The translations under genes were made by a program, and so were the position numbers. The notes under the pieces were generated by a model. It was not told the origin of the DNA, ran no database searches, and saw nothing but the letters and a program-made list of their open reading frames with translations. Below are positions 8,463 to 40,410 of a DNA stretch of 64,000 nucleotides, one piece after another. The DNA is taken from positions 2,170,001-2,234,000 of the forward strand of contig JAKULF010000007.1 of assembly GCA_022661535.1 (NCBI GenBank), written 5' to 3'. This DNA is from Eutypa lata (Eukaryota; Ascomycota; Sordariomycetes; Xylariales; Diatrypaceae). How positions within the stretch are numbered: position 1 is the stretch's first letter; each line of letters starts with the position of its first letter.

Positions 8463-9300
8463 TGTTTCTATGGGCTCATAGTAGTCTAAGATAGTTAGTT
8501 TTACCTTCTATCAGAGAAGAAAACAGACTTTATAGCTGAGAAGTACGCGGTAGATAAACGATCACATCATTTTAATCGTAAGGGCACCATTGTGAGCATA
8601 AGCTATATAACTATTCTGATTTGTAAGCATGTGATTGATAATACTCCTTATCATGGGCACTCTCTTGACCACCGTTTCATAGAGCCCCGCTTCCAACGTT
8701 CTATTAACGTATCGCCATCAATATCGTCTCAGTGCATGCCCTTTATCGCGCCCTTAGATAACATGAGCCATTACAAATGCATGACAGGAAATATTTATGA
8801 TTAGGCATAAATAAATATACATATGTATGTAGCTAGAGAATGCCTTCCGACTTGTGTAGAGACTTGTGCAGAGAACTAAAGCAAAGACAGTTAGACCGAA
8901 GGCAGAGTTTATCCATAAGCTGACTAAGCAGCTCTTCGTACCTAAATAGGGGGCCCCTTACTGAAACAATATGCTAGGTTACCTGAGATAAATACTTTGA
9001 AGTTATAAGAAATCCTCGTGCATTGCCAATGATTTATGATCTATGATCCATTGGATATACAATACTAGGATCTAACCACACGTCCCATTAGTTTCCTCTA
9101 GCCAAGACGATGAGATCACCGTACTCATTATCACCCTGTCGCAAAAAAAACCCGGGATAAAACAATTTCTAGGGACGGCCATAAGGGCTTTGATTAAGCC
9201 ACCATCATCGACCCTCGATGAACTTAAGGCTCTAGGCATTAAGCACATTTCATCCTTCTTCGCCGATAGATCTTTTAATCTTCGTTGTTAGGCGGAGCTC
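8463..9300. other. Intergenic, no gene seen
   Basis: AT-rich spacer with stretches rich in TATA and ATAAATAAATAT (near 8800-8830). No convincing frame. Confidence 0.45.
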
Positions 9301-19306: not shown

Positions 19307-22300
19307 CTACTTAGTTCGTGTACCAATATCTTTCAACACGTATATTTGGCCGTACAAGTCCGTAACATTGACAAAAACGCGAAGGGCGCCCAATAGCTCG
19401 CTGGGTTCCAGTTCCTCTTCCAACGCCTTCATCGCCCCCTCCAGTCCGCGTCGCTCGTACTCGGCAATCCACATAAGGTCCATGCTCGCGCTTCTGCTTG
19501 CCGTAATGCCAGCCGGCTGAGCCTGGCGCAGAGAGAACTCGGGAAAGTTGACCGAGTTAAGGGCGCCCTCGTCAGCATCGCGCGATAACGATCCGAGATC
19601 GTTATACATGCGACATAGACTAGCGAGATGCCGGCATGCGTCCTCGGCGGCATAGGCCGTGCGGGCGGAAGCTAAAACCCCCCCGCCTCGAATCCGCCCG
19701 GCCCTGGATAACACGTCGTAGACTAGGCAGTTGAAGAATATGAAGGAGAAAGGGCAAGATGTGTGATCGGCCGAGGTACTGCGCACCCAACGGTAGAAGC
19801 TCCGTCCCGGCGCGCGGTACTGTAGCAGTGGCCCGGAATTGTTCAAATCTGCACTGTCTCCTTTCGTGTGCATTCTCACGTGATTCTGTTCACGAAGACT
19901 GATGTTATCTTGAGCATGTGTAATATGGGCGAGAAGGAAGGTTTCTAGCTCAAAAGCCAATTGCTTCTGAAGGCCTTCTGGGTTGGAGAGTACCGCTGGA
20001 TGGCGTAGAATACGTGCTACAAACACCTGGAGCACAGATCTAACGTCATCTGTTGAGGGCTTGTGGTGTGGGGGAACCTTTTCGCCACAGGTTACCGGCT
20101 TCCGGTCCGACCCGGTAATATGTACTTTGAGTTTCTCCGAATCATGAGTGATTGGATTTCCTTCCCGAAACCCAGGATGGCCTTCGAGGAATAGCTGATG
20201 AACGAGTTTGCGAATGATATCTAGATCTGTCCCAAAACCAGTTTCGATCATACCTTCCATATATTCATCTACATGGAAGTTCAGAATGGACAGCACCATC
20301 ATATCATACAAGACGGATAAGCTTGTCGAGAAGCCATCAAACGCAGCACATACCGTTAGAGCTAGTGGTATGACAACCATGTACTTGTCCTTGCCCTTGG
20401 CTGTTCGTGGGAAAACGTCCAGAGGCTGGCGCCGTAGAGCCTGGAGGGCAAAACAAGCCTGCATCTCGGCTATGCGTAACACGCTTGGATCTTGGTGGGA
20501 CATTAAAGGGGTCTGGAAGATAAGGTCACCGGCGTTCCTCATTTCGAGCAACAGCTTTTTCGGCACCGAATTTCGACTTCCCGAGGAGGTTCCTGGTTTT
20601 GATTGTACTTCCGATGGGACAGGGGCGAGTGATGCGGCCAAGCAATATGCCTTGCTAAGCACGTCCGAACTGTATGTTACCTTCTCGATCCATAGATAAT
20701 GGCCGGTGCTCCATTTGGTTTTGTTCAGCTCAAGGAAAGACTTCCCACGCTTTACAGAGGAGATAATCCTGCTTGTATCTGATTGCTGAACCCAAGGTAG
20801 TTTTGCTAGCGACGACAATGCTAAGATAGCGTATGATGTTACTTCGCAGATACCATCCCATGATTTGTCTTTTCCCTGGGTATGCAGTATGCGCATAAGT
20901 ATTTGTAAAGATACCATGGGCATCTCTTCACGCAGGCTCGGTGCATGGTTGAATATATCTAAGGCTACCGCGTAGTGTTCAAAGAGGAGTTCGAAAACAC
21001 GAGCTAAGAGCATCATCCAGTATAGCTCACTCCGATTCTTGACCAAAGGTAAGCTTAGTATCTTTGTAAGGGCTGGGAATAGAGGTTCACCTACCCATTT
21101 CTCATGTACGTATCCTCTAAAGGCCTGGCTCGTTAAAAATTGGATAGCTTTAGCGATTTCCGGGAAGTGCTGAGCTCTGTCCTCCCGCAACAATAGGAGA
21201 ATGGCGATGTTGCAATTTGCGCTGAAGCTCGGGTTGCGTTCCCCCAAGTACGTCAAAAAGTGCTCTTCAAGCTCAAACGTCTTTATCAGGTTCTCAACAC
21301 CACTACTCTGGCCTAGATAATGAAGACTCTCCAGGCCTTTGGCCGTGTCATCAGCATCGGGCAAAACGCCTGGTGCTTTTCGTTGTTTAGTGATGAGCAT
21401 GTAAGTCATGTACAGATTGGGGCACGAAACACAAAGCTTACCAAACCCGAGTAATCCTTCCTGGTCTAGAAGGGCATTTTGTAGGAGATGACTGAAAGCA
21501 AATTTCTCGCCCTCGCTTATCGGTACTCCAACTGCTGCCAAAGTAGTAATAACCTGATAAGAATGGTCCTCCAAATATTAGTAATAAGCCTAAACTCTGG
21601 GAGTAATACATGACGCACCCAGCTTAGTTCAAATATGCTCGTCGGCCAAGCGCATGGTACACCCCCGCAGCCGAGCCCATTGTCTCGGTAGATCACACTT
21701 CTCAGATAGGCTTCAGCCTCATCATCCCAAGTCGAAGAATTCATCAGATACGCAGCTGTCGATCTATCTCAGTTAGCATGCAATGATCATATTGCTGAGG
21801 TAATACTAGCACTCACGCCGGAGAGCCCATCATCGACCCGTTTGTCTGTCGCCAACGTTGGACATGATCGAAGTCAATATATCCAATGAAGGCTTCGAGA
21901 GAGTGATATAGAGTTGAGGGGTTTTCGTATATGGTTGAAGGGGGGAACTTCGCCAATTTGGTATCGCGTATGGCACGTAAATCTCCGAGCTGCGAGAACT
22001 CTATGGAGACGCCTTCTTGCTTAAGGAGATTCATGAGCGAAATTACGAGAATCTCTTGGCCGACTTGGTCGGTCGACTGTGTCTCCCATTGGTCCAGTAT
22101 CTGTTTTAAGGCTGCCTCAGCCTTCTGGGCCTTGAGCAACCAGTCATGGCGCTCCGGTTTGGCATGTAGATGCCTTTTCAAGGACAGTAGTGCGGCAGCC
22201 GTGTTCAGAATGCCGTCGACTGGTGTGGCATAACATTCCCAACCGCCCGAGTCGAGCTGTTGCGTAATGATGTGTTCGAAACACTCTGGGAAGCCAGGTA

Positions 22301-22479
22301 TGAGATGCAGTACTGTCAGAGTCTGGCTTCACCGGCTTTCGGACCATTGAGAGCCAGGCCGTGTCATATATGGAGGTAGACATTGAACCGAAAGACTTCC
22401 CCTGGTCCCCCGAGCATTGTGCTGCTAAAGCGACCAAAAGACTCTGTGCTTGGTCGTGTAATAAGAATGAGGAGTCCAT
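19307..22479 (-). CDS. Bifunctional diterpene synthase (copalyl diphosphate / kaurene-synthase type), with a frame problem near its N-terminus
   Basis: Exons 22479-21817, 21763-21619 and 21568-19307; introns of 53 and 50 nt, the second with a TTACTAATA branch site. About 1,020 aa, the size of fungal CPS/KS enzymes that cyclise GGPP in two steps. Seen motifs: SIYDTAW at the N-terminus, LDSGGW, a class II DxDD motif (PDADDTAK, 21347-21361), a class I DExxE-type motif (DEYME, 20255-20269) and the second metal motif NDLGSLSRD near 19590-19613. So both active sites appear present. Between SMVRKP and FPECFEH (22285-22345) the frame shifts by one: either a 1-nt gain/2-nt loss, or a 49-nt GTGAAG...GAG intron that would remove part of a conserved motif. 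It is the presumed first enzyme of the cluster that follows. Product stereochemistry cannot be read from sequence by eye. Confidence 0.88.
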
Positions 22480-24806
22480 TGTTACTGATGATCCCGCAAA
22501 GACACGAAGCACTTCCGTAAACTATGAAATGAGTAAATGGCCTCATTGTCTCAGTTAAATGCTATCTCACGGACCTGACACATTTCCAGGATTCTTTAAT
22601 ATAAATTCTACGCTAATATGGAGGCTTAGTATAATTGTATTTTCCGGTTATCAAGATGATCCCTCATGTCCACCTGAAGTCGGCCAATGTCTAACTAGCC
22701 TCAATACAACAGCCGGGGCGTCTGCCCATCTACACTCGTTGGGATAGTGTTACATTATGACAGGCTGTGAAATATCAAAGGGAGGTGTGCATATACTTGG
22801 GGTTACTTAATGAGATGGAAATGCTACATAGCCTTGTAGCTACACTACGCCGCGGCAGATACCGAATCAAAAAAAAAGTTCAGAATGTACGTTGGAAATT
22901 TGTCCCTTAAATGTCACCTTGGGACGAGATAATGGAATTGCAACCATGGACGGCGATCCCTAACCTAGTTTTGACATATAGCTTACATAGATAATGCGGG
23001 GTGACATGTGTCGTAGTCAACATTAGATATATCATGCCAACACGCTTGCACTTTTATGCATGGCTCTTATTTTCAATTAAATGTTAGGTGAGATTATACA
23101 GTATCCGGGATTTTCGTAGAACGTTACATAGGTACTCTTCATTGGCCAGGGGTGGGGGGAGCTGCATCTCGTATCTCTCTGTCGCTTATTTGCCTTGTTC
23201 TTTGAAGTATTTTAACTAGCAGCTTTAGTGGTTGTCAACCCTCAAATACATAGATCGTTTACAATACTTATCAGGCATATTCCATTCCCACTGTTATTTA
23301 ATGTCAGATATTAGTAACAATTCTGATGCTGTAACACGGAATGGTAAGAATCTATGTAGAATACTGGCACAGGTACCCATTAAACATGCACTTCCTTAGT
23401 AAAGCCTCAAAATCAATTTTGTCCATAGTTTTGTCACATCTGCAGCTTTCAATATCCAGTATTTCCTGTTTATATCCCGCCGCGGTATCTAAGGATACAG
23501 CTATTCTTCCTATTTAGTGCTTGCCATTTCACTTTCTTCCGTTACCTTCGCCGTTTGTATCATGCACAAAAGTAATTATATGAACCAGGTACCAACTTAG
23601 GTAGGTAGGTTCTACGGACCGTACGTTATAGATGCCGCAAATGCCGCCCATGTAGCTCTAGGTACCCGGACTATGTATGTGAGCCTCGTCATACCCAGGG
23701 TTGCCTATAATGATCATAGGATGAGCTTAGGTGCCCATGGGTAGTATTGCATACGTTTGATATCTAACAACCTAGGTAGGCTCCAAGATTTAGAATGTAG
23801 TTAGTAGTCGACAGTACCCATACACACTGTGAAGTGGCTTCCAACACCTTTTATGTGTTGGTGGAAACCTGCAGCTGTAGTTAGTGGAATCAGGCGTGGG
23901 TGGCATCGCAAGGTTTCCACGCCGCTTCGATGCATAAGATAATGATTAGGACCGATTGGTTGTTATAAAGAAACAGAGCCTGCAGGATGACTAGCTCTAG
24001 GCTGGCCAATTGTTAAATTTCGTGCCTATAGGTGCCATTAAGTTTGATAAGCCTACATTGAGTATAGTGTGTGTGGGCCGTAGCATTATTGAACCTAGCC
24101 TCGTCAGTTACTATACGGTCACATTATACCCCCACCGAGTTGTGTCACTTGCCTTGGGGCTCTACGACGTGATTGTATTGGGATCTACAGCGGAATGAAT
24201 CCCATCTTGCTCCTTGCCTCGACAGGATTGGAGAGCTTCGCCGCTTTGTTCAATCGAGAATGATGCTGATGCATGCAAGAATATGGTAATCGTGAACGTC
24301 GTATCTGTCAGGATTCTCAATATACAGTACCACCCACCAAGTTCAGGGCTCGGCCGACCCATCTCTATACCACTTACTACCATATAGGTAAGCTGTTAGA
24401 ACCCCGACCAACCGCCATGTTTCATTGCATGGTTCGCACTGCGGGGTTTTGATGTAACTGGTAAATTTCATGTTGGTAGTTGAGGGATTCTAAGTAAAGT
24501 ATTATGCTAAGGTTGAGGGGTATTTGGGGTAAGTACTTCACATGTACAAAGAAAAAGAACTTCATCTTTATTTCAATACTACCTACATATACCTATGTAA
24601 CCAACAGCATGTCCTAGTAGAGCTAGGGGCTAGGCTCTTGCGGGGGCTCACATAAGGTAGGTAAGATTATCAACCAAAAGAGACGAAACCTGATTTTACG
24701 TGTGAGTCGCTTTCTACAGCTCCTGTTGCAACCGTGCTTGGGTTGCTGCAATGGGTTTCGAGCCCTCAAGTCCAATGTTGTAGCAGCGCTACATATAGTA
24801 CACTCT
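22480..24806. other. Long intergenic region (2.3 kb), no gene seen
   Basis: AT-rich, many stops in all frames. It contains nested inverted repeats at 23837-23920 and CCTAGGTAGG-type palindromic motifs near 23595 and 23771. It also holds the diterpene synthase promoter (next to 22479) and the P450 3' flank. Confidence 0.5.
23837..23920. repeat. Nested inverted repeats (possible hairpin)
   Basis: CCAACAC (23841-23847) and GTGTTGG (23855-23861) form a stem with a 7-nt loop. Directly after, GTGGAAACCT (23862-23871) pairs with AGGTTTCCAC (23911-23920). The function is unknown; it could be the remnant of a small inverted-repeat element. Confidence 0.5.
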
Positions 24807-26600
24807 TTAAACAGCAGCAGTATTCTCATTGGTCCATTCTATACCCACGGCGTCATTTCGGCGGCGCAGCAACATTCTGTTCTCCGGGTGGAAGAACAAG
24901 AACTCGTGGATGGCACTGCGCCCGGGCTGCACGCCGTCGACGAACGCGATGTCGTATTCGTCGATCAGCTTCACCAGGAAGATCTTGGCAGTCATGTCAG
25001 CCAGGTAGCGCCCGGGACAGGCCCACCTGCCCGATCCCCAGGTGAGGACGTCGGTGTCGACACTGCTGAACGGCAGGGCACGGTGCTGCTCGAGTGCTTT
25101 CGGGTCGGCGCAGAACCGGAGCCCGTCGTAGCGCCCGGCGTGTGCGAAGACGCTCTCGTCCCGCGTGCGCGAGGGCCCTGATATGGTCACGAACTGGCCC
25201 TTCCTGAGCAACGTCCCGTTTTCGAGTATGTGGTCACACTGAACGACGCGGCTGTACACGATCAGGGTGCCCGGCGTCAGGCGCGCCGTCTCCTTCATGG
25301 CCGACTCGAGGTTGTCAAGGCCGCGGAGCGTGGCGAAGCCCCAGCAGCCCCCGATCTGTGCGTGACGGGCACGGATTTCGGCCCGCACCACATCCAGCAC
25401 CTCAGGGTGCGCCGCTAGGTCTGAGAGCGCTTGGCAGATGAAATTGCCGATGCTGTACGTGGAGCCGGCGGCGATGGAGCCTACGAGAGTCGTCAGCAGG
25501 TGCGGGTCCCGCTCTAGCTCCGTCCGGCCGTCTTTCACCATCCACGCGATCAGGCTTGGGCTCGTCATCCCATCCTTGGGGTCTTCACAAGTAGACTCCG
25601 CCATTTGTCGATGCACTTCGGGTACAACGAAACAGCGGAGCTCGCGCCATCCTCGTTGCAATCGCCATTTGGCAGGAAGCAGCCACACCAGAAACGGCTG
25701 TAGGAAGGCTGGGAAATATCGCATGGCGAACGCAACTCTAAACACTACGCGATGGCAAGGTCAACCTGAGTAGATGGCAACTATCGCTAGGTTGAGGTCT
25801 CACCATTCTGGGTATGCTCCATGGTAAGCTGCTTGAGCTTGGGGTCCTCTGACATCTTGGTTCCGTATAACGCAAGTGCTATGCCTTCACTGAGGCAGCT
25901 GACAGTAGCTGAAAGCATCTGAACTTCTTTCCAGTGATGATCATGAGGAAAATGCCGTTGCATAGCCGCGTACACGCGCCTCGCTGTTGGCGAGAAAAGT
26001 TGTGGGAGCGCTGGATTGATTCTACTCAATAACATGCGGACGTGGAAGCTGGTCTGGCGGACCACTTGCATTCCCGTTATATGACCGAGCAAGGTAAAGT
26101 CGTGAGATTGGCGGCTGTCCAACACATCTGTCCCAAGGCGGTTCAGCTCCGGTATGACATCCGGTGGCAGTACGAGTAGATCTGTATCACCCCTGGCTAG
26201 CTTCCAGGGAGCACCTTTGGCCTAGTGATTGAGCTGTTTAGTCATGTTGGGCTGAAACAAGCTTTGGCTCAACGGGAAGGGGAGGATTGATTGCGTCTCC
26301 TTATCTTACCTTTTTGCTTCCGCCCTCAAGAATCTTTTCAGCCGTGAGGCTCCAGCGAAGTCGGGCGAACCATGATGGCTCAAGTCTGAAGAGCCTGTTC
26401 TCAGGACAATTGCTACTTAGACCACGTGTGACCCAGGAATTATACGAGGCAAAGAAGACGAAGACTCCCACGGCTGTAAGAAGCGATACGAGCTTAACGC
26501 AGAGATCGTGAATGTCGAGCTTGAAAATAGAACAGATGTTGCCGTTCAGTTCCATGAAAGGTAGACCTGATTGAGCTTCCATTTTGGTTTTAAGTCTCAT
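24807..26600 (-). CDS. Cytochrome P450 monooxygenase (P450-A), 548 aa
   Basis: Exons 26600-26310, 26221-25804 and 25744-24807 (introns 88 and 59 nt, GTAAGA...CTAG and GTGAGA...GTAG). It has an N-terminal membrane anchor (LVSLLTAVGVFVFFASY), so it is ER-bound. Other landmarks are the WxxxR-like helix C region, the K-helix KETARL (ExxR), the FAHAGRYDGLRF (PERF-like) segment and the heme loop WGSGRWACPGR, whose Cys binds the iron. The I-helix reads GSIAAGSTYSIGNF and lacks the usual acidic-alcohol pair. This resembles fungal P450s of diterpenoid and gibberellin-type clusters (CYP503/CYP68 group), an assignment from memory and not a computed one. Intron positions match P450-B and P450-C. Inferred role: oxidation of the cyclised diterpene. 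A second ATG at codon 7 could be the true start. Confidence 0.9.
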
Positions 26601-27214
26601 CCCGGCTCAGTGGCCAAGTGTTAAATTTAAGCAAGCGTGGAAGAAGAAAGTGCACGGCGTATGCGTACCCAGGTAACTTAAGGTTTCGTATGGAAGACAT
26701 GAGTACTGCCGGGCTCTGGTGTACTCAGATATATCGTAGATAGTAGCCATTTTCTCTGACGATTGACCTCCAATCATAACCAATGCACGCGTTTCAATAT
26801 GTCAGACCAATCAGCTAGGCCCCCACCATCTTCGCCGTGTCTGAGGCTGCAGAAAGACTGGTTGATGCATGTTGGTACACGCAGTGGATCTATCCAGAAG
26901 ATGCCCACTGATTCTTTAGCCAACGTCGCATTGTGCGGCGCCACCGACCAAATCCTGATGCCGATACCGATGTTACCTCGACAGCTTAGAGACGGACGGA
27001 CACACACCCCTCTCTCCCCAAAAACTTCTTAAGGCTTGATTCATATGGTGCTCCCGGTCCCTTATTTTTGTCCCCGGTAACTGAGTGATGCTCGCATGTT
27101 CCGCCCCCTCGTCTTTGAAGTTGCGTAAATAATAGCTTTGATATCTGTCAAACCAAAACGGTTATATCTTGCCGATAAACCTTAAAGGCTACTTTAGAAA
27201 AGAAGACCCTTAAC
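26601..27214. promoter_or_regulatory. Divergent promoter region between P450-A and the rhodopsin-like gene
   Basis: The two genes start head to head 614 nt apart, so this stretch must hold both promoters. No specific operator was identified. Confidence 0.5.
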
Positions 27215-28686
27215 ATGGACAGTTCAGAAGAGCCCGTGGAATCGGCCGTCACCACAGCCCTTGTGATAGTCTCTGTCATTTTTCCAATTCTTTCGGCGTT
27301 CGCCATCTACTTGCGACTCTGTGCTCGTAGAGGCACACCTCCACCAGTCCGTTCCGATGATGTCTGGCTGTTAATCTCTTGGGTATGTTGTGATATGGAG
27401 TTTCTGAAATATATTTAGGACCGACTGACAATATGTATACGTGTCGTGGAGGTTTCTACTTTGGCACTCAGTATTTTAGTCTGGATTTATGCCGCGCGGT
27501 CTGGTATCGACTATTATAAAATAGATCCCATCAGTGGGACTCAAGACTCTTTAGCGGTTCGTGAATTGCTCTCGATTACATGTTGTACGTTCTACTCTAT
27601 GGCATAACAACTGAACACCGATTCTATGCTGTACACAGATGGTATTCGTTTCTGCCTGCGTCATCGCGCTACCCCTATCGGCGGTCAAAATAGCCATTTT
27701 ACTATTTTACAAACGGGTCTTCCCAATCCGAGCCTTCACGATCAGCGTCTGGGTTGCTATTGGAGCTGTCTCGGTGTGGGGCCTTGTGTTCTTCTTCGTT
27801 AGTACATTCCGAGTCTAATCTAGAATCACGCAGCTTGGAAGAAGTCGGAGCTAACACATTATAATATTGCTTTCACAGCTAGTACTGACACAAGTGGATC
27901 CAATATCTGCCTCCTTCACTCTGGGGGAAAGTCGCTTGCGGTACAACTCGACAGCCTTGGGACTGGCACAAGTTGCCACGAGCATAGCTTTGGACCTTCT
28001 TGTCTTATGCTTCCCGCTACCGGTCATCTCACGATTGAACATGAACAGAGCGCGGAAGGTAGCGGTATCACTAATGTTCTGGCTTGGAGGATTGTTAGTT
28101 TCCCCCACAAGCCAAAAAGTCCGCCCATTTTAATATGTTACCAATACAGCTGTTGTGTTGCCGCCATTGTGCGGCTCGTACTTTTGAATCGGGCCATACG
28201 TGACATCGTCCACACTCATAATCACATTTGTAAGTTGAGAAGCTACCTTGCCAGGCTGCCCAACGGTCCCAACCTCCCAGCCAAGAGATAGCTAACAGAT
28301 GACATACAGACCTACAGGACCAAATCTATATTTTCAAGATCATCGAGCCGAACGTCTCCATCATTGCGGCATGTTTGCCGTGCTACGGTCCTCTGTTCAA
28401 AGGAGGCCGTGCTGCCGAGTCATTGATCCGTAGTGTCCGCTCTATAGTCAGCCTAGCCAGTGGCGGTTCGAACAATACCTCACCAGCCTTCCCTTTACCG
28501 AAACGGGAAGCTGAGAGGACCGCGAACGAATCTGAGATTGAGCTACGCGACTTGGGTTGGCGCGGCCAGGGTCAGCAGGATGCGCAGTGTGTTGGTGGGA
28601 GGGACAGTCAGGATGTGGAGGGGCGCTCACTTGAGCAAGATGGCAGGATCCAAATCACTAGGGGGGTAACAGTTGTGGAGGAATAA
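27215..28686 (+). CDS. Rhodopsin-like integral membrane protein (fungal 7-TM family), one junction unresolved
   Basis: Exons 27215-27382, 27452-27584, 27639-27797, 27879-28093, 28150-28229 and 28310-28686. All introns have GT...AG ends, but exon 2 (GTACGT donor at 27585) to exon 3 (ACAG at 27638) leaves one extra base, so the frame breaks there. The protein is the common fungal integral membrane type (DUF/rhodopsin domain). Seen: TM1 (VIVSVIFPILSAFAIYL), RSDDVWLLISW, LALSILVWIYAA, VKIAILLFYKRVFP, TALGLAQVATSIALDLLVLCFPLP, and the family end motif YIFKIIEPNVSIIAACLP before a charged cytosolic tail. Such proteins often sit in fungal secondary-metabolite clusters; their job is unknown. Here it is head to head with P450-A. 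A 1-nt indel or a non-standard splice would explain the junction. Confidence 0.75.
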
Positions 28687-30311
28687 GTCCGGCAAGGCTG
28701 TTTAAGCATAATTGCGACCAACCTTACGCTTAGCTGACTGCCTAAGGGGTGGGCGCTTGCTCACTCATGTAACCGTACTTGCTATGGGAGATGCCACCTA
28801 GAGGTCTCAAAGAGTATCCTTCAAGGTAGTTGGATTCCAATGGAAGTTTCCCTTCGTAGTAATCAAGCGGCGGTAAAATGGCTGTCTCGAGTTGCATAGG
28901 ATTACTTTCGACGGATGAGATTCCCGCATCTTACCAGCCAACAAGACCGGGCTTAATCAAACATTGACTAAACAGGGCGATAAGACTCAAGCATGGAAAG
29001 ACCGGTGTTGTGGTGTTGTACAACATGATTCAATTTATGTACGGCTGTTCCTACATACCTTGCAGGTTTCTATACAATCCCTGGTGTTGCGTTAACTACC
29101 TAACATGCACGGAATCCGATTGGAGTTATATTTGACCGGGAGGGGGGGAGGGACACAAGTTTTATCGGTTCATCGACCAACAACTTGGAATGCCAAGAAT
29201 TCAAACTCGGAGCCGGACTGTCTATTCTACCCGTTGGTCAATGTGGGACTGCCGTACTACCTAGGATCCTTTGACATGTAATATTTTGCGGACTTCAACC
29301 CGGATTTGGTAGAATATGCTCAGATGCAACGAGAGCAGTCCATTGGTCAGCCTGCTGCAAGCGGTGGTAGATGAGGACGCCAACTGCATTAAAGAGCTAC
29401 GATCAGAGGTGCGCAGGAATATGCCCATCCCTTCCGCATCCTTCGCAATTGCATGCTGTGTCACCAACACAAGATACCTGGAAAAAAGCAAAGTAAGGTG
29501 CCGACGGGCAGTATACTTTTAAACGGGTTCTGTGTAACATCTATTAAATTCTGTAAGTGCACGTATATCGCACGTACCAATCTTACGTCAACTCCAACCT
29601 TGAGTTGGGTCGATGATAACCTTGTCACCCGATCGCCCGTTCGGTGATCATCGTGCATTGTGTGATGGCGGTTGTCAAGGGATCAATCCTATGATTTGCC
29701 ATTCCCCGATCTATGGCATATGGGCCAAGCAAGGAGTCTTTCGTGATGCAATACAACCTCACACCAAGCCACAACGCGTAATAAGTATCATGGACGATGG
29801 ACCAACATACAAAAGAAGCAAGGCAGTGTATTTGGTTGTTATATTGAGCATGGTGGGGTATTAAGCCTTGTTTTATGTATGTACGTGCCTAGCAAGTACG
29901 TTGCACCTGCTGTAATAAGGTAGCAGTTGCCCTCCTCTTTGCCTCGACGAGTTAATAATCTCCATGAATGGTTTGCCGAGCCTCGCCAGTTCCCCACTCT
30001 ACCAATCTCCAGCGAGTTGGGGTGCCCGCGGTACTCACGGCTACGTAGCGATAGGGAGCCGAGGATTGGTAATTATTCTAGGGATGACTTCATGGATAAA
30101 TGACACCCGTGCCCGTTAACCTTTGAACCTACATGGTTTCTTGTGTAGTTACGTGATAATACTAAGTAGCCCTCACTATCATAGGAAACGTAAGGCGGTT
30201 TATCAAATTCCTGCATTCGCGGTTGGACTTATTCCTAATAATGCAAAATACTGATACAGATTTACCCTTCAAAAAGAAGTTAAGAATAGAGTAAAGTCAA
30301 ACATCGTGTCC
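28687..30311. other. Intergenic (1.6 kb), no gene seen
   Basis: No frame with a recognisable product; small frames near 29316-29522 and 29613-29864 have no family features. It lies between two converging cluster genes. Confidence 0.5.
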
Positions 30312-32010
30312 TTAAAAGGGCGATAACTTTTCCTTGTGTCTTATGAGCATTTTCTTAGCAGGCGAAACCAACACGAACTCGTACAGAGTCGTGTTTCCAG
30401 GTCTCCCTTCACCAGGCAGGAAAGAGAAATCGTAGTCCGCAAGTAATTTCACAAGCACCATTTTTATGCCAAGACTTGCAAAGACACGTCCAGGGCACGC
30501 CGATTTCCCATATCCAAGATTAAGTCTAGTCCGGGAAGGGTTCGAGAAAAGGTATTTCTTAGCTCCTACAGTATCGTCGGCTTTCTGTCGTTCCTCAAAA
30601 GCTCGGAAGTAACGGAGGCCGTCGAAGTCTTCCGGGTGGGGTGTATTCTCGGGATCATTCTCTATTGCATGGGTAGCCATACAAGTGTAGGTACCCGCAG
30701 GGACATATGTGCCATCTTTGAAGGCATAGGGAACCCTGAAGAATCGCCTCATTCCAAATATCGTTGGGGGGCGTACTCGCTGCGACTCACTAATTACGGA
30801 ATCTAGGCGGTACAAGCGGTCATAAGGCATGTCGGTCCAGCCTTGCTCCATAGTTGCAGTGGCCGTAATTTCAGCAAGGAGCTGGTTTTTCAGGTCCGGT
30901 CCGGCAGCCGTAATATCGTAAAGGGCGTTGATTATGCGAAAAAGGTTATTATGGACAGCGGCGAGCACAACAAGAACCAAAACATGAGATATAGTGTCCG
31001 GGTTTCGTTCAGCTCCCTTTGCTAACGAACACAGCCATCTAAGGACATTCGTATCATCGAAGTTGTCATCCCTGGGCTCCCAGCTGCCTGAATCCGCAAG
31101 GTCGATCAGCTCCTGGATGTGCGGTCCTAGCAGCTTCTTCGCCGAACTAAGGGATTTTTTAACCTTCCAGTATGACGGGAGAAGTGGATATATAAGGTAG
31201 TGCATCCAGGACGGGAAAAGACGCAGAACAACAGTCGTCATAAACACTGCATACATCGTCAGCAACGATTCTCCAAATATAGATAAACAGATCATGCTTG
31301 CCATTTTCGGTGAATTCAAAAGAAATATTCAACCACGTTGGATCGTCACAAAGACCCGGACCCACGATCATGTTCGCGGCAAGTCTAGCAGAGACTCGTT
31401 TCAGCAGGTGGTAAGGCTGAATCTCAGTCCAGTTTTTGCTGAGACCATGGGGGAGCTCTTTGGCGAGACCGGCATTGATAGATTCCTCCAGTCGGGGTAT
31501 GAGTTGTGGTAAATGTGGAATCAGCTTTCGTTGAACAATCATATGGTGGAGTCTGCTTTCGACCATCAAATGCATCCCGGTAAAACGACCCACCAAGTCA
31601 AGTTCCAACGCGGGCTGTATGCTGGCGATTTCATCTGGAAGACTGACGAGCTCCTCAAGAAGCGAAGGCGGAAGGACAACAACACTTCCCTCGTAGCGCA
31701 GGAGTTGAAACGCCGTGTTCTTAAACTATAAACGGCCGAAATTAATAAATTTTCCTGTTGTAAAAGGCTTAATCAAGCATACTTTAGAATAACCATATTG
31801 GACATTTTGTGCCGCTGTGCGAAGGTAAACGAGGTTTTGGACAAAACTAGGCATGAACCAGAACGGACTGCCCACGATAGGATATCTGAGTTTTACCTGA
31901 GCAGTTCTCCTAATAATGAAAGCATCAGCAGCGAAGTAGATGAAGGCTAGCAAGGGCAAGACCCAATACATCCACGATTTTAGCATCATCTTCATATACT
32001 GAATATACAT
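30312..32010 (-). CDS. Cytochrome P450 monooxygenase (P450-B), 528 aa, with a GC-AG intron
   Basis: Exons 32010-31783, 31725-31302 and 31246-30312. Intron 1 is 57 nt (GTATGC...ATAG). Intron 2 (31301-31247, 55 nt) starts GC (GGCAAGC) and ends GCAG with a GCTGAC branch site. It joins TEN to VFMTTVVLRLFPSWM in frame, which matches the same junction in P450-A and P450-C. The protein has an N-terminal anchor (YWVLPLLAFIYFAADAF), I-helix-like ISHVLVLVVLAAVHNN without the AGxxT motif, SESQRVRPP (ExxR), FDGLRYFRAF and the heme loop LGYGKSACPGR. It is a close paralogue of P450-C: RLHHMIVQRKL versus RLHHSIVQRKL, DITAAGPDL versus GITAAGPDL. Likely a diterpene hydroxylase or oxidase in the cluster. It is head to head with the methyltransferase. 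Confidence 0.9.
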
Positions 32011-32498
32011 CTTAATACTTTAAGTAGTTATTCACGTTAGAAAAGATCAGATTCATTATAAAAAGAAAAAAAAAAAAAAAAGAAAAGAAGAGAGCGAAAG
32101 AATTTAGAAATGCCCCGGCGACTTAATATCATCTTTTTTCTTATGCATACCTAACATACATATATACGTGCATAAGTAGTTGGGTGTTACATGTAGGTAC
32201 TCCCACAGTACATAAATACATAGTACATGTAGGTACCTACCTAGGTAGTTATGTACATATATACATAACCTTAAAAGGCACACATGCACCAGATAGAACC
32301 GACGTTGGCCGTTTGCCCAGCCTGTGGCCAGGCTCGGGTACGACAACTACCCGTCTCTCCAGGTTATTAGGTATCTAAGCCAGTCACATTGTCCAGATAA
32401 GTTTGAGCTTCCTTTCCACTTTGCTTTTTTTATATACCGAAGTCCTTGCCCTTACACATTATCAAGCCATCGACAAGAGCTTCCGCCAAACTCAAGTC
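32011..32498. promoter_or_regulatory. Divergent promoter between P450-B and the methyltransferase
   Basis: 488 nt separate the two start codons. The region has a poly-A tract (about 32068-32086), two direct copies of ACATGTAGGTAC (32189-32200 and 32225-32236, 36 nt apart) and a GGTACCTACCTAGGTAG palindrome right after the second. Paired direct repeats in a divergent promoter could be a regulator binding site; this is inference. Confidence 0.5.
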
Positions 32499-33520
32499 AT
32501 GTCGTCTCGACCAGAATATGTCTTTACTCGAGATTTTCTCGACAACAATCGGTGCGTACATCGGATTCTTCCAAGGTTGATATCGGCCCCCATTTCACCA
32601 ATTGCCGCTCAATTAACAGGCTTCGTATAATGACAGGATCAACCTGATGCACCATCTTTGGACCAAGATCTTTGGCTACCTCATTCATCCGAAGATCCCG
32701 ACCGAAAAACCCGACTTGCAAGTGGCAGATATAGGGACGGGCACTGGGTTCGACTTCCTCTTATCCACCGACGAAGAATAGGGCTAACCTTTCATGTCAG
32801 AATTTGGCTTTTTGATGTTGGTGAGAAGGTCTCCAAATCTGCTCGCCTAGTTGGGCTGGACATCTCGTTCAAGGCAGCACCGCCACCGGCCACCCTCCCA
32901 TCCAACGTAACCTTACGACACTGGGACGTAAGGGATGATGTTCCCGAGGACCTCATCGGTGCTTTTGACGTTGTTCATGTTCGTTTCTTCTCCTTCGTCG
33001 TCATGAACGAAGAAGTTCCCGGTGTCGTGGAAAAGCTCTACAAGCTCCTGCGTAAGTCCAACCATAATTCCATGCAGGCTTCTGATAGCTTCGTGTATTT
33101 TTGACACCATATTCCATTACAGGACCAGGTGGATACTTGCAGTGGGGAGATCCCGACGTCTCATCCATACGCATAGATAAATCAGAGCCGGGCAATAAGA
33201 CCGAGAGTCTGAGCCGTCTAATGCAGCTCATGACCGTCCAAGACCCGCGCTTCAGCCCAAAATGGGTGACGGAACTCCCCAATATCTTCGCAGCTAGTGG
33301 TTTTGTGGACATTGAGCATCATGTTTGCGATGCCCCACCTCACCTCTCGTTCATCATGCATGAATGCGGACTCATGATCCATGATCTTATCGCACGGAAG
33401 ACCAAGAACGAGAAAATGGCACAGGAGCTTGAACAGTTGCTCCCTCAAGCTGTGGACGAGACCAGGGAAGGGGCTTATGTATCCGCTGTTCGATGGGTAG
33501 TGATCGGGAGGAAGCCCTGA
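32499..33520 (+). CDS. SAM-dependent class I methyltransferase, 270 aa
   Basis: Exons 32499-32551, 32637-32747, 32801-33051 and 33123-33520 (introns 85, 53 and 71 nt). The spliced frame is intact. The SAM-binding loop VADIGTGTG (about residues 47-55) is formed across intron 2, followed by LVGLDIS (acidic ribose-binding residue), the motif II/III region DDVPEDLIGAFDVVHVRFF and KLLRPGGYLQWGDPD (post-III). This is the small fungal methyltransferase type found in many secondary-metabolite clusters. It probably O-methylates a hydroxyl or carboxyl group of the cluster product, but the acceptor cannot be read from sequence. Cytosolic; it shares its promoter region with P450-B. Confidence 0.9.
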
Positions 33521-34750
33521 GGAAACAACCTCCCCTCGGGCTTGAAGATAGCACCAGTGCGATAAAAGACTGAGTGTGATATGGCATAGCAGCTTGACAA
33601 CCTTCGCGATTATTGTTGCCAATCATTAATAAATTTTTCGCTCGACATTCTTTCCTTATACTGTAATGGAATGCTATCATATGGTGATGTGACCGCCTCC
33701 TACAACAAGTATACCAGGATTATATGCTATCGTAAATATCTACGGCCTTAGCTTATGTGAATTCAATCAATATACGCTTTTATGTCATTAGTTTATTTTT
33801 AAGTTAAACTAACCGTGGTTCATTAAATCATAAGTATGAAATTAAATATTAATGAAAAGAAAATGCACATAATTTAGTATGAATATTAAAGATGAAACGA
33901 ATATATATTATATAAAAACTATTTTTTTAACTTATGAAGCGAATTTAAGTTAACATATTAAGGACCTGGCACTTCAAGCTAGGCTGGAAAACGATCACAC
34001 AAAATCTACGGCGCGAAAGTAGGATTTCCGGTCAGTGACCAACGTTGGTGCAACGGTTACATTACATAGGAAATGTAACTATGGTGTTTATAACTACTTT
34101 TAACGTGCCCATGAAACTACTGCAATGCAACCCACGAAAAAAGACGTCGGGGGTTGCATTGCCTACCAGCCTGCTCCAAGCCCCCATCATAACCGACGCG
34201 CCATAAGTACCGCAAGACTACTATAGTACAAGACGGCAACATCAACCAGTCACCTCACAAAGACGAAACTATAACCACTGCATGTATCTTGCGTAGGGCG
34301 GTGGCCTTAACACTCCATCAAGTGTGATTATGACGATCCATTGCCATATCTAGAATTTATAATTTAAATTCATAAATGACTCAAGCAACCAGTGCTACCA
34401 CATACGTTGTCTTGGAAGGCTGTGGTTGGCATCCTCAGAAACGACCTATTGGTCTCGCAGCAGCTCAGGTCTTACGGTATGATTCTATCTTCTTGGATCC
34501 CCAAGACGAAGGGCACTGGGTTGTGACCAATTAACTTCCTTTGACATTACATTATTTTGCAGGAACTCCTTTACCTCAGGCGCCCTTTTCAACAACCCCG
34601 CTCTTCTATCCCTTTGCCCCTTTCCGGTTTCCCTCCATCCTCACGCTCCCAGAGTAGGGATGGGATTTAGCGAGCTCCTACTACCCTCCACACAGTCCGG
34701 CATCAAGACATCAATCCGTCATTAGTATCCATAAGACCTATCTTAGCATC
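33521..34750. other. Intergenic with an AT-rich island
   Basis: No gene. Bases about 33700-33970 are strongly AT-rich and TA-rich; the rest holds the methyltransferase 3' flank and the transporter promoter. Confidence 0.5.
33700..33970. repeat. AT-rich, TA-rich island
   Basis: Nearly pure A/T with many TA steps (for example TATATATTATATAAAA near 33902), unlike the balanced composition of its flanks. It could be a RIP-degraded insertion or a natural spacer; no ends of an element are visible. Confidence 0.5.
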
Positions 34751-36751
34751 ATGGCCGCTCAAGAGGCCAAGATAGAGCAACCTATGGTACCCGCAAGACC
34801 CAGTCAAAAGGAGGGCGAAATTGATATCAGTCAGGATATTGATCCCGAGAACGAAGTGACAGGTATCAGGCTTGTGTTGATACACATTGCTATCTGCCTC
34901 TGCACCTTTCTCGTTGGCCTCGTAGGACACCATTTTGAACCGAACCTACTTATATGTTCTGATTAGCAAGTGACGCTAATGGTTTCATCTCAAAGGACTT
35001 CAATATCGTTGCGACTGCGGTCCCCTCCATAACAGCCGAATTTGACTCGATCCGCAATGTCGGCTGGTATGGAGCGGCTTTCATGTTAGCTTTGTACGTG
35101 GCTCACCAGAACCCTTGGCCGCTTCTCTTGGTGTTCACCGTCACAGTTCAACTGCTGACCCGATATGTTCCCTCAGATGCTCTAGCCAACCGCTGGCTGG
35201 CAAGACGTACATACTGTTCTCCAAGAAAGTCGCCTACCTCGTGTATCTATTTGTCTTCGAAGTGGGTAGCCTCGTATGCGCGCTATCGCCGTCGTCAAAT
35301 GCCCTGATCGTCGGGCGCGCTGTTGCGGGCCTCGGAGCCTCCGGTGTTTTTGCTGGGGGATTCACTCTCCTAACCACTATAATTCCTTTGCACAAGCGGG
35401 CCATTTGGACTGGAATCATGGGCTCGACTTTCGCCATCGCCAGTATTGTTGGACCCGTCCTCGGAGGGGCATTTACAGAGCACGCCACCTGGCGCTGGTG
35501 TTTCTACGTCAACGTAAGATCGCAAATTCGAGATCTTCCCCTTTCTGAGTCTTAACTGATGGTCCTTGAAAGCTGCCGATTGGTGGCGCCGCTGCCGTTC
35601 TGTTCTTTTCCTTGGTTCATATCAAACCAAGCAAGGAAGAGGAGGCATCATTTCGAAGCAAACTGCAAGGCCTAGATATGGCTGGTTTTGTTTTGATAGC
35701 GGCATCTATCACTATGCTGCTGCTCGCACTCCAATGGGGTGGAATCACCTACCCTTGGTCGTCATCTGTCGTGATCGGTCTTTTTGTCGGTGCTGCATCT
35801 GGGATAGCAGTTTTCATCCCCTGGCAGCTTTATCGCAAAGATGATGCACTCATTCCGCCGCGACTCTTCACCATCAACCGGAACCCAGCTTTGCTCTGTG
35901 CAGCCGCTTTTTTCATAAATGGTCCCTTCCAACTCATCATTTACTGGTTGCCCATATGGTTCCAAGGGGTTTTGAGGGTATCGCCAACACAGAGTGGCAT
36001 CAATTACTTTCCCACCGTCATCGCTGATGTGCTTGCAGCCTTCATAGGCGCGGGGGTGGTTCAGCAGCTTGGGTGGTGGAATCCCTTCATTTTACTTGCC
36101 GAGGCTTTCGTTTGTATTGGTGGTGGTTTACTGACTACTTTGCACCCTACCATCTCCAGTAGCCGTTGGATCGGATACCAGATTTTCGGTGGAATTGGGT
36201 ACTCCCTGGCATCTAATCTAGTAAGTGGCAACAATCGTTTCTTATGAGGAATCCATTATTCGGTGTATTACCCATCGCTGATGCTCTTACAGTCTCATGT
36301 TGCCATGCAATCCTCACTACCACACAACCTCGTCCCTATTGGTACGTCTACTCTTTTGACGATCATATCTACCAGTTGTGCCATCTTTATGGCTGTAGGC
36401 CAGGCCGTTTTCCAGACAAGGCTTGAAGTCAACCTCGGCAAAATCTTACCAGCAGATGTTGTCGACACAATTATATCGTCAGGGGCGACCGAGATAAGTT
36501 CCTTAGTCGGCCAGGCAGAGTTATCTTCCGTCTTTGAACAGTACAGCGTATCTGTGACGGAAGTGTTTGTATGTCCGAATTCCACGCCCTTCGGAAATTA
36601 TATTCACATATTCATATCTAACGATAACAACCAGTATATTCCAGCTGTTTCACCAGTCATATCGTTTATCTTAATAGCAGGTTGCAAGTGGATTTCAACC
36701 AAAAGCAAACAAATTAAGAACGCAGATAGCGGCAAGAAGGAGTCGGTTTGA
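34751..36751 (+). CDS. MFS transporter, drug:H+ antiporter type, 548 aa
   Basis: Six exons: 34751-34921, 34996-35093, 35177-35513, 35573-36220, 36293-36568 and 36635-36751; introns 59-83 nt, frame intact. About 14 membrane helices are expected (DHA2/14-TMS layout). Seen: the first helix VLIHIAICLCTFLVGLDFN with the VATAVPSI motif, NVGWYGAAFML, IVGRAVAGLGASGVFAGGF (motif around TM4), GPVLGGAFTEHATWRWCFYV (antiporter motif C region), and LPIGGAAAVLFF. It is a plasma- or vacuolar-membrane exporter. Its place between the methyltransferase and P450-C suggests export of, and self-protection from, the cluster product. A hydrophilic 40-aa N-terminus comes first. Confidence 0.92.
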
Positions 36752-37941
36752 TGCCTGGTAAATGGTATGTGGGTGACAGAGACGTCAATTGTCGTTTAGT
36801 GGGCGATATTTAACTGTATTATTCACTCCTGTTTCAATGAAGTAGCTTTCTGCAAGTAATATTTCGGAGAGAGCGTAGTATCCCAGGTATTTGTGTCCAA
36901 GATCATACATAGGTAAGTAGTTATTAACGCGCTTCTGACTATGAACCGACATGGGGCATGGCACCAGCCGGTGACGTATGACTAACTAGTAACACATATT
37001 CATGTCCAAATCGGCGTACGATATCCATTGGGTGGACCTCGCTGTTTGTTTTTGTCAACTTGTGCAAGGCCCTGAAATGTGTGCAGAGAGAAAGGTACTT
37101 CATTTCGAAGACTACTATTGGGGAATTCTTACCGCCTGGTAAGGCTGTGTGGATTTAAGTGCAAACTTCATTGTAAGTTAACTTTCAAAGACACGGCGCC
37201 GGGATGTGGTCGAATTGGGGTGGCAAAGCCGCCTTGGCTCCTGTAGGCTGGCCGACATCTCCGGCCGAAGTACCTGAGAGGGCCGGGATGCAACTCAACC
37301 CATGCGGCATGAGTTCAAGCCTTACAGGTAACCAGTCTCGTCACATTCCTGGCTGTGTGGCAATCATAAAGACATTGGTCCAGGGATTTGCCGAAAAAAG
37401 GCACTAAGATATGCTGCTCATACGATGGTTGCATTGGCTGGCGGAGAATGAACGTGCTGTACATCTTTTACTCTCCCATCTCCTGCCTTTATTATCCTGT
37501 GTAGTCCGTATATCATGATATCAATTGCACTGTGGAGCGTTATATCCATTGTCGAAGCCATGCAGCTAAATTAACTGTAGGATGCGTCTTCGGGATCCAC
37601 CACACCACACAAGCATGCCTTTTGTACCACGCCTCCCTCCTGCTGTACCATGCTGTCTTTGGATTAAGTATTGATGTATCGCGGTACATGAGACATCTAG
37701 TCGAGCCCTCTGTTCGACTATGGCCAGCTTACTCCAAGTGGTATATTGCAATGAGCTGCTAACACAGCACCTGTAACACACTGGTTTGATATTAGATTTG
37801 GCTGCGGTATTAAAGAAGTGGAAGAATATCGATTCTGGATAGCCAGGCCTTGTCGTTCCTCGGTAAAACTCATATACATTTTCCGGTTGTAATTATTAGT
37901 GCTTGCCTTCTCGCTTCCATATCTCCGCAACAGCCACGGCC
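36752..37941. other. Intergenic (1.2 kb), no gene seen
   Basis: A G+C-richer stretch near 37200-37400 has short frames but no family features. It includes the P450-C promoter. Confidence 0.5.
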
Positions 37942-39723
37942 ATGGACTACTTCTGCCTTCTAAGCCGTTCTTCACATGATTTAATCACACCTGTGAGCTG
38001 GGCGGTGTCGTTGTTCATCCTCGTATACTTCTTCGTTGAGGCCACTTCCATACTAAGGCCTGGGCAAAGACAATTGAAGCATATTCCATTTGGCAGCGAC
38101 AATGCATTGATGCCGAAGTTCATCCACAATTTCATTTTTGCTAGTAGAGCAACAAGTATGCTCCAAAAGGCACACAGTAAGGTATGCTTATGGCCCAACA
38201 AACTCTCTTCGACTCATGCTGTCTTTTTTCTTCTTCCCCCCCCTTTTAAAAAAAACAATATTACCATAACTTTAATACATTAACTCAAGCCTACTACCGC
38301 AGTTCAAAGGCTCTGCCTTTAAGCTTATACGGAATGATGGCAATATTGTAATTCTACCTCTCTCTCTACTGGAAGAACTGGCATCTCTCCCGACAGCAGT
38401 TGCTAGTTCTCAAGCCGCATTGGAGCACGATCTTCTAGGCCGCTATACTGGGCTAGACTTAATCCTTGAAAACAGACTTCATCATTCAATCGTACAGCGT
38501 AAACTTACGCCAAGGTTACCATTGATGGTGCCTAGGATGGAGAAAGCAGTTTCTGACGCCATAGAGTCAAACTTGCCATTAGCCGCAAGAGACGAGTGGG
38601 TAGAATTTGAGCCCTATCAAGTGTTAGGAAGAGTTTCCGCAAGAGCTGCCGCGGAAGTCATTGTAGGGCCCGCGTTTTGCGAAAACCCAGTTTGGCTTGA
38701 CATTTCCTTTAATTACACAGAGAACCGTGAGCAAATCTATCAGCTACCAGTAAGGCGTGACCTCGGCTTACTTGTCATCACTTAGTCTTCAAAACCATTG
38801 TCATTATGCGTCTACTACCGGGGTGGATGCAGCCATTAGTCTATTTTGTCCTTCCTTCTTACTGGGAGTGTCAGAGGTATCTGAACATGTCCAAGGCTCT
38901 CCTAGGTCCCAGGATCGGCGAACTCATTGGGAAAAGTGATGCCGGTATATGGGAACCCGTGGATGACGATTCTAGCGACCTGAATATCCTCAATTGGCTG
39001 TCTAGTATGGCAAAAGGACGTGATCGCAACTCAGATACGATCTCCCATGTGCTGGTTCTGGTAGCCTTGGCATCGGTTCACACGACGCTATTGCGAATGG
39101 TGAATGTGCTTTACGGTATTACTGCAGCCGGTCCCGATTTGCGCAAAGAACTTCTCGAGGAAATTGCTACTGTCGCGGCGGCCGGCTGGAACGCCAATTC
39201 ATACGATCAGCTGCATCGACTAGATAGTGTATTATGCGAGTCGCAAAGAGTGTCACCGCCAACAACTTTAGGAATGAAGCGACTATTCCGGGAACCATAT
39301 ACATTTCAAGACGGAACACACATACCCGCCAATACTTACGTTTGTGTACCAATACATGCGATCGAGAACGATGCCGCACACACTTTCGACCCTGAGAAAT
39401 TCGATGGTCTACGAAACTTCCGTGGCCGAAAAGAGCAGGGTCATGACAATAACCTGAACACGTTAAGTTCCAAGGAGTACCTGTTTTCTACGCCAACTCG
39501 GACAAGGCTCAATTTTGGATATGGAAAAGCAGCATGCCCTGGTCGCTTCTTTGCAAGTTGCGTTATCAAAATGGTATTGGTCAAGATGCTTACTGAGTAT
39601 GAATTTTCCTTTATGCCGAATACAGGGAGGCCGACAAACTTGATGGTCCACGAGTTTCTCTTTCCGTGGCCGTGGCAAAAGATGCTCGTGAGGCGGAGGG
39701 GGGAAACCTGTGCACCATTTTAA
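37942..39723 (+). CDS. Cytochrome P450 monooxygenase (P450-C), 533 aa
   Basis: Exons 37942-38181, 38303-38726 and 38786-39723; introns 121 nt (GTATGC...GCAG) and 59 nt (GTGAGC...TTAG), frame intact. N-terminal anchor VSWAVSLFILVYFFVEA. Shared landmarks with P450-B: LEHDLLGRYTGLDL, RVSARAAAEVIVGP, LLPGWMQPLVYFVLPSYW, SHVLVLVALASVHTT (I-helix without AGxxT), CESQRVSPP (ExxR), FDGLRNFRG and the heme loop FGYGKAACPGR. It is an ER-bound oxidase; its likely substrate is the cluster diterpene. Its two introns lie at the same codons and phases as in P450-A and P450-B, so the three come from common ancestors by duplication. It points in the opposite direction to P450-B. Confidence 0.92.
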
Positions 39724-40134: not shown

Positions 40135-40410
40135 TTATATACACCAGAGGGTGGACGCTAGCTCGAAGGTGGCTAGGTCTATCTTATCACCTGACAGATA
40201 CCTAGGCCTGAAATAGACACTTGGCGGTTTTGGTGCCCATCTCTGTTGGCGTAGTATGGCAGATGTCTGTTCAATATCCGGTACAAGGAGATGAAAGTCG
40301 AAGACAACGGTAGGTACACCATATCTGTCAATTGCATTCTCAAACCAAAGCGAGGTTGGGATTGAGTCCTGAAGTAGGATTCTGCACGGCGCTAACCTAG
40401 GTAATTCCAT
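40135..40410 (-). pseudogene. Possible fragment of an uncharacterised fungal protein
   Basis: A 91-aa frame with a well-formed segment SLWFENAIDRYGVPTVVFDF...LLVPDIEQTSAIL. It resembles the N-terminal part of a fungus-wide hypothetical family that I recall as having 200 or more residues; here the frame stops soon after. It may be a decayed or truncated copy, or an exon of a gene I cannot complete. No function is known. Confidence 0.4.

What the first reader, a model, noticed from the sequence alone, without database searches (positions are those of the whole stretch)
19307..39723. Apparent diterpenoid gene cluster: cyclase, three P450s, methyltransferase, MFS exporter, rhodopsin-like membrane protein
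A cyclase with both class II (DADD) and class I (DEYME) motifs is followed within 20 kb by three P450s, a small SAM methyltransferase and an exporter. That is the standard make-up of a fungal labdane-type diterpenoid pathway. The combination with an added methyltransferase and no GGPP synthase does not match any cluster I can name with confidence, so the product may be new.
Basis: partly seen in the sequence, partly recalled or inferred. Interest (0 to 1): 0.85.

Follow-up and report, generated by a model that had tools for sequence, protein, structure and literature searches.

The report
Eutypa lata diterpenoid gene cluster
A grapevine dieback fungus carries a seven-gene cluster for making an oxidised, probably methylated diterpenoid of a kind already known from fungi, but the key cyclase gene looks broken near its start in this assembly, so whether this isolate makes the compound is open.

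Summary
The window is Eutypa lata or very close kin. Seven genes at 19,310-39,720 form a plausible fungal labdane-type diterpenoid cluster: a bifunctional diterpene cyclase, three P450s, a UMTA-type methyltransferase, an MFS exporter and a PTH11-like (Fung_rhodopsin) membrane protein. Apart from the cyclase I found no lesion; one P450 needs a GC-AG intron, and the PTH11-like gene was only partly modelled.

A 49-nt intron could skip the break, but its donor scores poorly. The rest of the cyclase, motifs included, is conserved.

Cyclase plus this P450, and more rarely plus this methyltransferase, recur on shared contigs of other ascomycetes. Fischer et al. 2015 already list P450, UMTA methyltransferase, MFS and PTH11-like genes beside such cyclases, and clusters without GGPP synthase. 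A GGPP synthase gene lies 371 kb from the cluster's end. So this is a new member of a known kind. The product is unknown; an oxygenated, methylated (iso)pimarane/labdane-type diterpenoid is a guess. Cyclase and tailoring genes have their closest relatives in different clusters, which suggests a mosaic.

The parts
19310..22479 (-). Bifunctional class II/class I diterpene cyclase (CPS/KS type). Exons 22,479-22,333 (N-terminal piece; frame lost downstream near 22,290), then one ending at 21,817, 21,763-21,619, 21,553-21,442, 21,375-21,095, 21,037-19,310. Motifs DADD, DEYME, NDLGSLSRD
   Evidence: Homologues up to 61%; spliced models; motifs and invariant columns; family profile match to solved copalyl diphosphate synthases over positions 5-532
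22284..22332 (-). Stretch holding the frame break in the cyclase, at the WLFPEC block; alternatively a weak 49-nt GT-AG intron
   Evidence: Sequence and alignment; donor score -0.07, lower than 34 of 36 other modelled introns; 4 of 4 modelled full-length paralogues open here
24810..26582 (-). P450-1, 542 aa, exons 26,582-26,310, 26,221-25,804, 25,744-24,810; ETAR and WGSGRWACPG; 24-25% identical to the other two
   Evidence: Pfam p450 E 1.4e-20; complete model
27215..28683 (+). PTH11-like integral membrane protein (Fung_rhodopsin); modelled to 28,094, later exons only sketched
   Evidence: Pfam PF20684 E 5e-8 and 8e-11 on two exons; frames and partial model
30315..32010 (-). P450-2, 528 aa, exons 32,010-31,783, 31,725-31,302 (GC donor), 31,246-30,315
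   Evidence: Pfam E 2.1e-18; same as E. lata MGN70_007801 over the first 201 and last 310 residues, 17 residues replaced by one between them; model
32499..33517 (+). UMTA-type SAM methyltransferase, 270 aa, exons 32,499-32,551, 32,637-32,747, 32,801-33,051, 33,123-33,517; DIGTGTG SAM motif
   Evidence: Pfam E 6e-9; 81-82% to the best relatives; model
34751..36751 (+). MFS exporter (MFS_1/TRI12), exons 34,751-34,921, 34,996-35,093, 35,177-35,513, 35,573-36,220, 36,293 to the stop at 36,751
   Evidence: Pfam MFS_1 E 1.8e-19, TRI12 E 1.3e-9 on two pieces; model to 36,568; ORF end
37942..39720 (+). P450-3, 53% identical to P450-2, exons 37,942-38,181, 38,303-38,726, 38,786-39,720; start Met read by eye
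   Evidence: Pfam E 3e-25; model from 37,999 on; identity

Best explanation
This is a fungal diterpenoid biosynthetic cluster of the bifunctional CPS/KS kind in Eutypa lata. Inferred pathway: a GGPP synthase encoded on the same contig, 371 kb from the cluster's end, supplies GGPP. The cyclase protonates it at the DADD site to copalyl diphosphate and ionises that at the DEYME/NSE site to a polycyclic, perhaps (iso)pimarane- or other labdane-type, hydrocarbon. P450-2 and P450-3, a diverged duplicate pair, and P450-1 oxidise it, perhaps a methyl to a carboxyl. The UMTA-type methyltransferase caps a hydroxyl or carboxyl, and the MFS protein exports the product. Shown by calculation: gene content, motifs, kinship, recurrent co-location of three of the genes. 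Inferred: every reaction and the product. In this assembly the cyclase is probably frame-broken, recently if real, so the pathway may be off in this isolate while other isolates or species run it.
For: Gene content. Cyclase kinship (246 hits, 120 listed); tree with win_C1 in starred sets of 2, 8, 20 and 36 rows. Co-location by identical organism and contig length: cyclase+P450 on 19 contigs (transcribed: 49 of 61 P450 hits, 87 of 246 cyclase hits), cyclase+methyltransferase on 6 (98 of 203 MT hits transcribed), all three on 2; no length coincidence between different organisms. Near-adjacent tags: DL771_001051/001053, CHU98_g3355/g3352, EKO27_g4513/g4511, ABKA04_006611/006613 for P450, PFICI_11972/11971 for MT. 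GGPP synthase-like gene at C1:2,580,938. After the break the cyclase departs at 4 of 113 columns invariant in 22 relatives; the 22 relatives, each against the other 21, depart at 0 to 10 of 113-123.
Against: Cyclase frame break. Nearest relatives are split: cyclase to Hypoxylon NC1633 (61%), P450-2 (other species) and MT to FL2044 (65%, 81%), whose cyclase on that contig is only 39%. The MT link is weak in numbers: most transcribed MT hits (92 of 98) share no contig with a listed cyclase, among them an equally close one in Monosporascus (82%), and two contigs have P450 and MT hits with no listed cyclase. Same contig is not adjacency on long contigs. No co-expression data. P450-1, MFS and PTH11-like were not tested for co-location.
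Confidence: 0.8

Rival explanations
1. The cluster is dead or dying in this isolate: the cyclase is a recent pseudogene and the tailoring genes persist without substrate or serve another of the genome's diterpene cyclases.
For: Frame break in the WLFPEC block; candidate intron has a poor donor and another AG two bases upstream of its acceptor; 4 of 4 modelled full-length paralogues are open there; no protein named as E. lata among the 120 listed cyclase hits or the 120 listed MT hits although the E. lata P450-2 is found (126 and 83 hits were not listed); Onetto et al. 2022 (results section seen): 62 of 82 metabolite clusters shared by 40 isolates.
Against: Rest of the gene conserved; a second copy of the main ORF exists in another data set (P0001, 99%), N-terminus unknown.
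Confidence: 0.45
2. The break is an assembly error or the 49-nt intron is real, and the cyclase works.
For: The assembly is contiguous enough to be a long-read one (inference; largest contig seen 6.72 Mb), and such assemblies can carry small indels; a CTGAC branch-like site lies inside the candidate intron; constraint elsewhere.
Against: If it is one of Onetto's assemblies it was polished with short reads (PMC9007359 section 2.2); the splice would remove most of a block kept in 13 of 13 relatives.
Confidence: 0.45
3. Mosaic: the cyclase was joined to tailoring genes of another diterpene cluster, so the product differs from that of the cyclase's nearest relatives.
For: MT and P450-2 have top or near-top hits on one FL2044 contig whose cyclase is 39% identical and in another tree group.
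Against: Hit lists were cut at 120; no synteny map; a better FL2044 cyclase may be unlisted. Hypoxylon NC1633, closest in cyclase, also has an MT hit (63%) on its contig.
Confidence: 0.4

Closest known systems
Diterpene synthase clusters of Chaetomium globosum and Botryotinia fuckeliana (Fischer et al. 2015, PMC4617483)
   Same: Cyclase motifs of the same type (Table 1: PGSLPDVDDTAKGIEAL / LNFHADEYMEGVVEKH; PGVLPDVDDTSKGLEAL / LNFHADEYMEGIIERH against window PGVLPDADDTAKGLESL / LNFHVDEYMEGMIETG); no GGPPS; 3 and 2 P450s; figure legend lists UMTA methyltransferase, MFS and PTH11-like among the partners
   Different: Figure not seen, so which partner sits in which cluster is not verified; products not stated in what I saw; window cyclase frame-broken
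Fusarium fujikuroi gibberellin cluster (from a passage of PMC4617483)
   Same: Bifunctional CPS/KS with several P450s
   Different: Has GGPPS, four P450s and a desaturase; no methyltransferase among its seven genes
Solved copalyl diphosphate synthases 9q3i and 8v0f
   Same: Class II half matches the family profile at 503 and 488 bits
   Different: Their C-terminus matches a GGPP synthase, whereas the window enzyme has a class I cyclase motif set there
E. lata_a diterpene synthase (Fischer 2015, Table 1)
   Same: Same species and enzyme class
   Different: It matches the C8 paralogue of this genome (one residue apart in the three printed stretches), not the window gene

Membership tests
Fungal bifunctional CPS/KS diterpene synthase | DxDD class II motif | tested here: met
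   DADD in window; DxDD in 11 of 13 aligned relatives; named as a type I/II signature in PMC4617483
Fungal bifunctional CPS/KS diterpene synthase | DDxxD/DExxE class I motif and NSE/DTE signature | tested here: met
   DEYME and NDLGSLSRD
Fungal bifunctional CPS/KS diterpene synthase | Open, full-length reading frame (needed to work, not to be kin) | tested here: inconclusive
   Frame break near 22,290 unless a weak 49-nt intron is used or the assembly is wrong
Fungal bifunctional CPS/KS diterpene synthase | Makes a cyclic diterpene from GGPP | not testable with these tools
   No enzyme assay
Fungal labdane-type diterpenoid gene cluster | Cyclase with P450s in one neighbourhood, recurring in other species | tested here: met
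   Three P450s in 20 kb; cyclase+P450 hits on 19 shared contigs, adjacency shown only where contigs are short or tags near
Fungal labdane-type diterpenoid gene cluster | GGPP supply | tested here: met
   None in window, as in several clusters of PMC4617483 Table 2; GGPPS-like gene at C1:2,580,938, solved GGPP synthase 2q80 at 303 bits
Fungal labdane-type diterpenoid gene cluster | Co-expression | not testable with these tools
   No expression data held

The most novel reading that the evidence does not exclude
An undescribed methylated diterpenoid pathway in Eutypa lata, assembled as a mosaic (cyclase from one Sordariomycete lineage, P450-2 and methyltransferase from another diterpene cluster) and now polymorphic in the species through loss of the cyclase frame: a chemotype switch caught in the act in a grapevine pathogen from which the family review records no diterpenoids.
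Probability: 0.25. Interest if true: 0.5.

Novelty: new member of a known kind. Interest (0 to 1): 0.32.

Why it matters
A review of the family (PMC11376284, passages seen) says that Diatrypaceae diterpenoids are all pimaranes from Eutypella and deduces that the pimarane cyclases are confined to that genus. This genome holds five CPS/KS genes with both motifs (the window's one frame-broken) plus a fragment, where Fischer et al. 2015 list one for E. lata. If expressed, they would give a dieback fungus an unexamined class of metabolites; if the cyclase break varies among isolates, it would offer a testable cause of some of their chemical variation.

Tried and rejected
Pfam on the cyclase gave no family (0 for the window ORF and for P0002), so kinship rests on sequence search. 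The own-genome P450 search listed no window P450; only 92 of 480 candidates were scored, so this is no evidence of absence. Intron reading of the frame break: tested, judged weak, not excluded. Extra cluster genes: MBOAT at 43,515-44,060, a CH-domain (fimbrin-like) protein at 47,311-49,002, HET at 16,175-18,184, ankyrin and flavin-oxidoreductase genes at 1.7-11.6 kb were scanned and left out as unrelated by domain. Other loci of the genome were checked by tblastn for the tailoring genes at E 1e-4: P450 relatives beside three of the four other full-length cyclases, a weak PTH11 match (22%) near one, no methyltransferase or MFS match in 20 stretches of 10 kb (its P450-1 query was mis-framed, so P450-1 was not tested there, and its PTH11 query was partial). 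Seven literature searches (PubMed Central open licences only, listings capped) showed no paper on this E. lata cluster.
Full report
What the window is. The assembly G000 has 54.5 Mb in 29 contigs and the window is C1:2,170,001-2,234,000. The window's P450-2 equals E. lata MGN70_007801 over its first 201 and last 310 residues; between them 17 residues are replaced by one, as a different splice choice would do. One cyclase paralogue (C8) carries the three motif stretches printed for E. lata_a by Fischer et al. 2015, one residue apart. So the source is Eutypa lata or very close kin. The largest contig seen (6.72 Mb) fits isolate TAS7 of Onetto et al. 2022 (6.7 Mbp; results section and section 2.2 seen), but that is not proven.

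Gene content. Between a HET gene (16,175-18,184) and an MBOAT gene (43,515-44,060) lie seven genes: cyclase (-), P450-1 (-), PTH11-like (+), P450-2 (-), methyltransferase (+), MFS (+), P450-3 (+). P450-1 (542 aa) and the methyltransferase (270 aa) close with GT-AG introns; P450-2 (528 aa) closes with one GC-AG intron; P450-3 was modelled but for its first 19 codons and MFS but for its last stretch, where the ORFs run on; the PTH11-like C-terminus is only sketched. P450-2 and P450-3 are 53% identical, P450-1 is 24-25% identical to both. All three keep ExxR and Cys-heme motifs (read by eye; the consensus is recalled).

The cyclase. 246 proteins match at E <= 0.001, best named Hypoxylon sp. NC1633 61%, Cytospora mali 58%, Diplogelasinospora 58%, Botrytis 55% (120 listed). 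The class II motif DADD, class I motif DEYME and NDLGSLSRD are present. A profile of 13 relatives matches solved copalyl diphosphate synthases 9q3i and 8v0f only over positions 5-532; the C-terminus of those two matches a GGPP synthase, so the window enzyme is not of that prenyltransferase-fused type. In an 85-row tree (quick method; 80 hits and 5 E. lata genes) it pairs with Hypoxylon NC1633 (support 97) inside starred sets of 8, 20 and 36 rows.

The frame break. Downstream of TAWLSMVRKP the frame is lost inside the block WLFPEC, which is present in 13 of 13 aligned relatives: a net loss of two bases relative to homologues. Four of four modelled full-length paralogues in the same assembly are open there, two of them with a changed block (WLFPQC, WLFLES). 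A 49-nt GT-AG intron would jump the break in two of three guided models (the third starts after it). Its donor scores -0.07; 27 of 36 introns modelled by the same program score 5 or more and 34 of 36 score higher than it (some of the 36, such as one P450-2 intron later replaced, are themselves doubtful), and another AG lies just upstream of its acceptor. After the break the gene shows no decay: 4 departures at 113 columns invariant in 22 relatives; each relative against the other 21 departs at 0 to 10 of 113-123. So the break is recent, an assembly error, or a real odd intron. I cannot decide.

Is the neighbourhood more than chance? I matched organism and contig length among the hits of three searches. 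Of 61 P450-2 hits (49 transcribed), 19 share a contig with a cyclase hit (87 of 246 transcribed; 120 listed). Of 203 methyltransferase hits (120 listed, 98 transcribed), 6 do and 92 do not. Xylaria telfairii and Xylariomycetidae sp. FL2044 have all three. No equal length occurred between different organisms. Some contigs are short (21-112 kb) and near-adjacent locus tags occur in five cases. Two contigs carry P450 and methyltransferase hits without a listed cyclase. Against a simple story: apart from the E. lata record itself, P450-2 is closest to FL2044 (65%), and the methyltransferase is closest to FL2044 (81%, best score) and Monosporascus (82%, a contig with no listed cyclase), but the FL2044 cyclase on that contig is 39% identical and falls in another tree group. 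Either the cluster is a mosaic or an unlisted cyclase was missed.

Precursor supply. Polyprenyl-synthase matches lie at five loci. C1:2,580,938 is GGPP synthase-like: its best solved matches are 6v0k 'Terpene synthase' (370 bits) and the C-terminus of 9q3i (366), then GGPP synthases 2q80 (303) and 2dh4 (224). C18 is an FPP synthase (1fps, 336 bits). C5:3,004,553 is closest to prenyltransferase parts of chimeric synthases (133 bits). C24 and C10 look like COQ1 and FPP synthase by eye (recalled signatures). Lack of a clustered GGPPS is ordinary.

Literature. Fischer et al. 2015 (PMC4617483; section 6 part 1, section 7, passages) give E. lata one diterpene synthase with 0 GGPPS and 1 P450; it is not this gene. 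They list UMTA methyltransferase, MFS, PTH11-like and P450 among syntenic partners; the figure was not seen. PMC8403587 (passages) reports four labdane clusters in Hypoxylon rickii and none in H. fragiforme. Onetto et al. report 62 of 82 clusters shared by 40 isolates. The Diatrypaceae review (PMC11376284, passages) confines the family's diterpenoids to pimaranes of Eutypella. Seven searches showed no description of this cluster.

Mechanism, confidence and novelty. That this is a diterpenoid cluster of the known fungal kind: 0.8. That the cyclase works in this isolate: about even. Product class: (iso)pimarane or related, by family chemistry only, a guess. The finding is a new member of a known kind; its interest lies in the unexamined diterpene capacity of E. 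lata and in the possible switch-off of the cyclase.

Noticed in passing
G000 C7:1,461,077-1,464,093; C5:1,179,669-1,182,573; C8:4,091,866-4,095,026; C24:751,149-754,153: Four further CPS/KS genes (916-947 aa as modelled), each with DxDD, DExxE and NSE-like motifs; P450 relatives near three of them.
   Followed up: partly
G000 C5:2,129,129-2,130,329 (L038): A sixth cyclase-like piece matches only residues 31-302 and 862-962 of a relative and has an in-frame stop; it looks like a decayed fragment.
   Followed up: partly
G000 C5:3,001,807-3,005,438: A second GGPPS-like gene lies about 1.6 kb from a P450, which hints at another terpenoid locus.
   Followed up: no
window 24,810-26,582: P450-1 has Trp where the heme-binding motif usually has Phe (recalled consensus).
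   Followed up: no
window 31,301: P450-2 needs a GC-AG intron for a full model; the E. lata MGN70 protein is 16 residues shorter there.
   Followed up: partly
P0184: A methyltransferase 71% identical to the window's is recorded from Mycena venus, a mushroom, on a large contig; transfer or mislabelling not checked.
   Followed up: no
window 40,138-40,410: A 91-aa ORF beside the cluster has one full copy in the genome and one short partial match on C10; function unknown.
   Followed up: partly
window 1,755-11,633 and 16,175-18,187: Ankyrin-repeat genes, an FMN oxidoreductase (7,347-8,507) and a HET gene lie on the cyclase side of the cluster.
   Followed up: no
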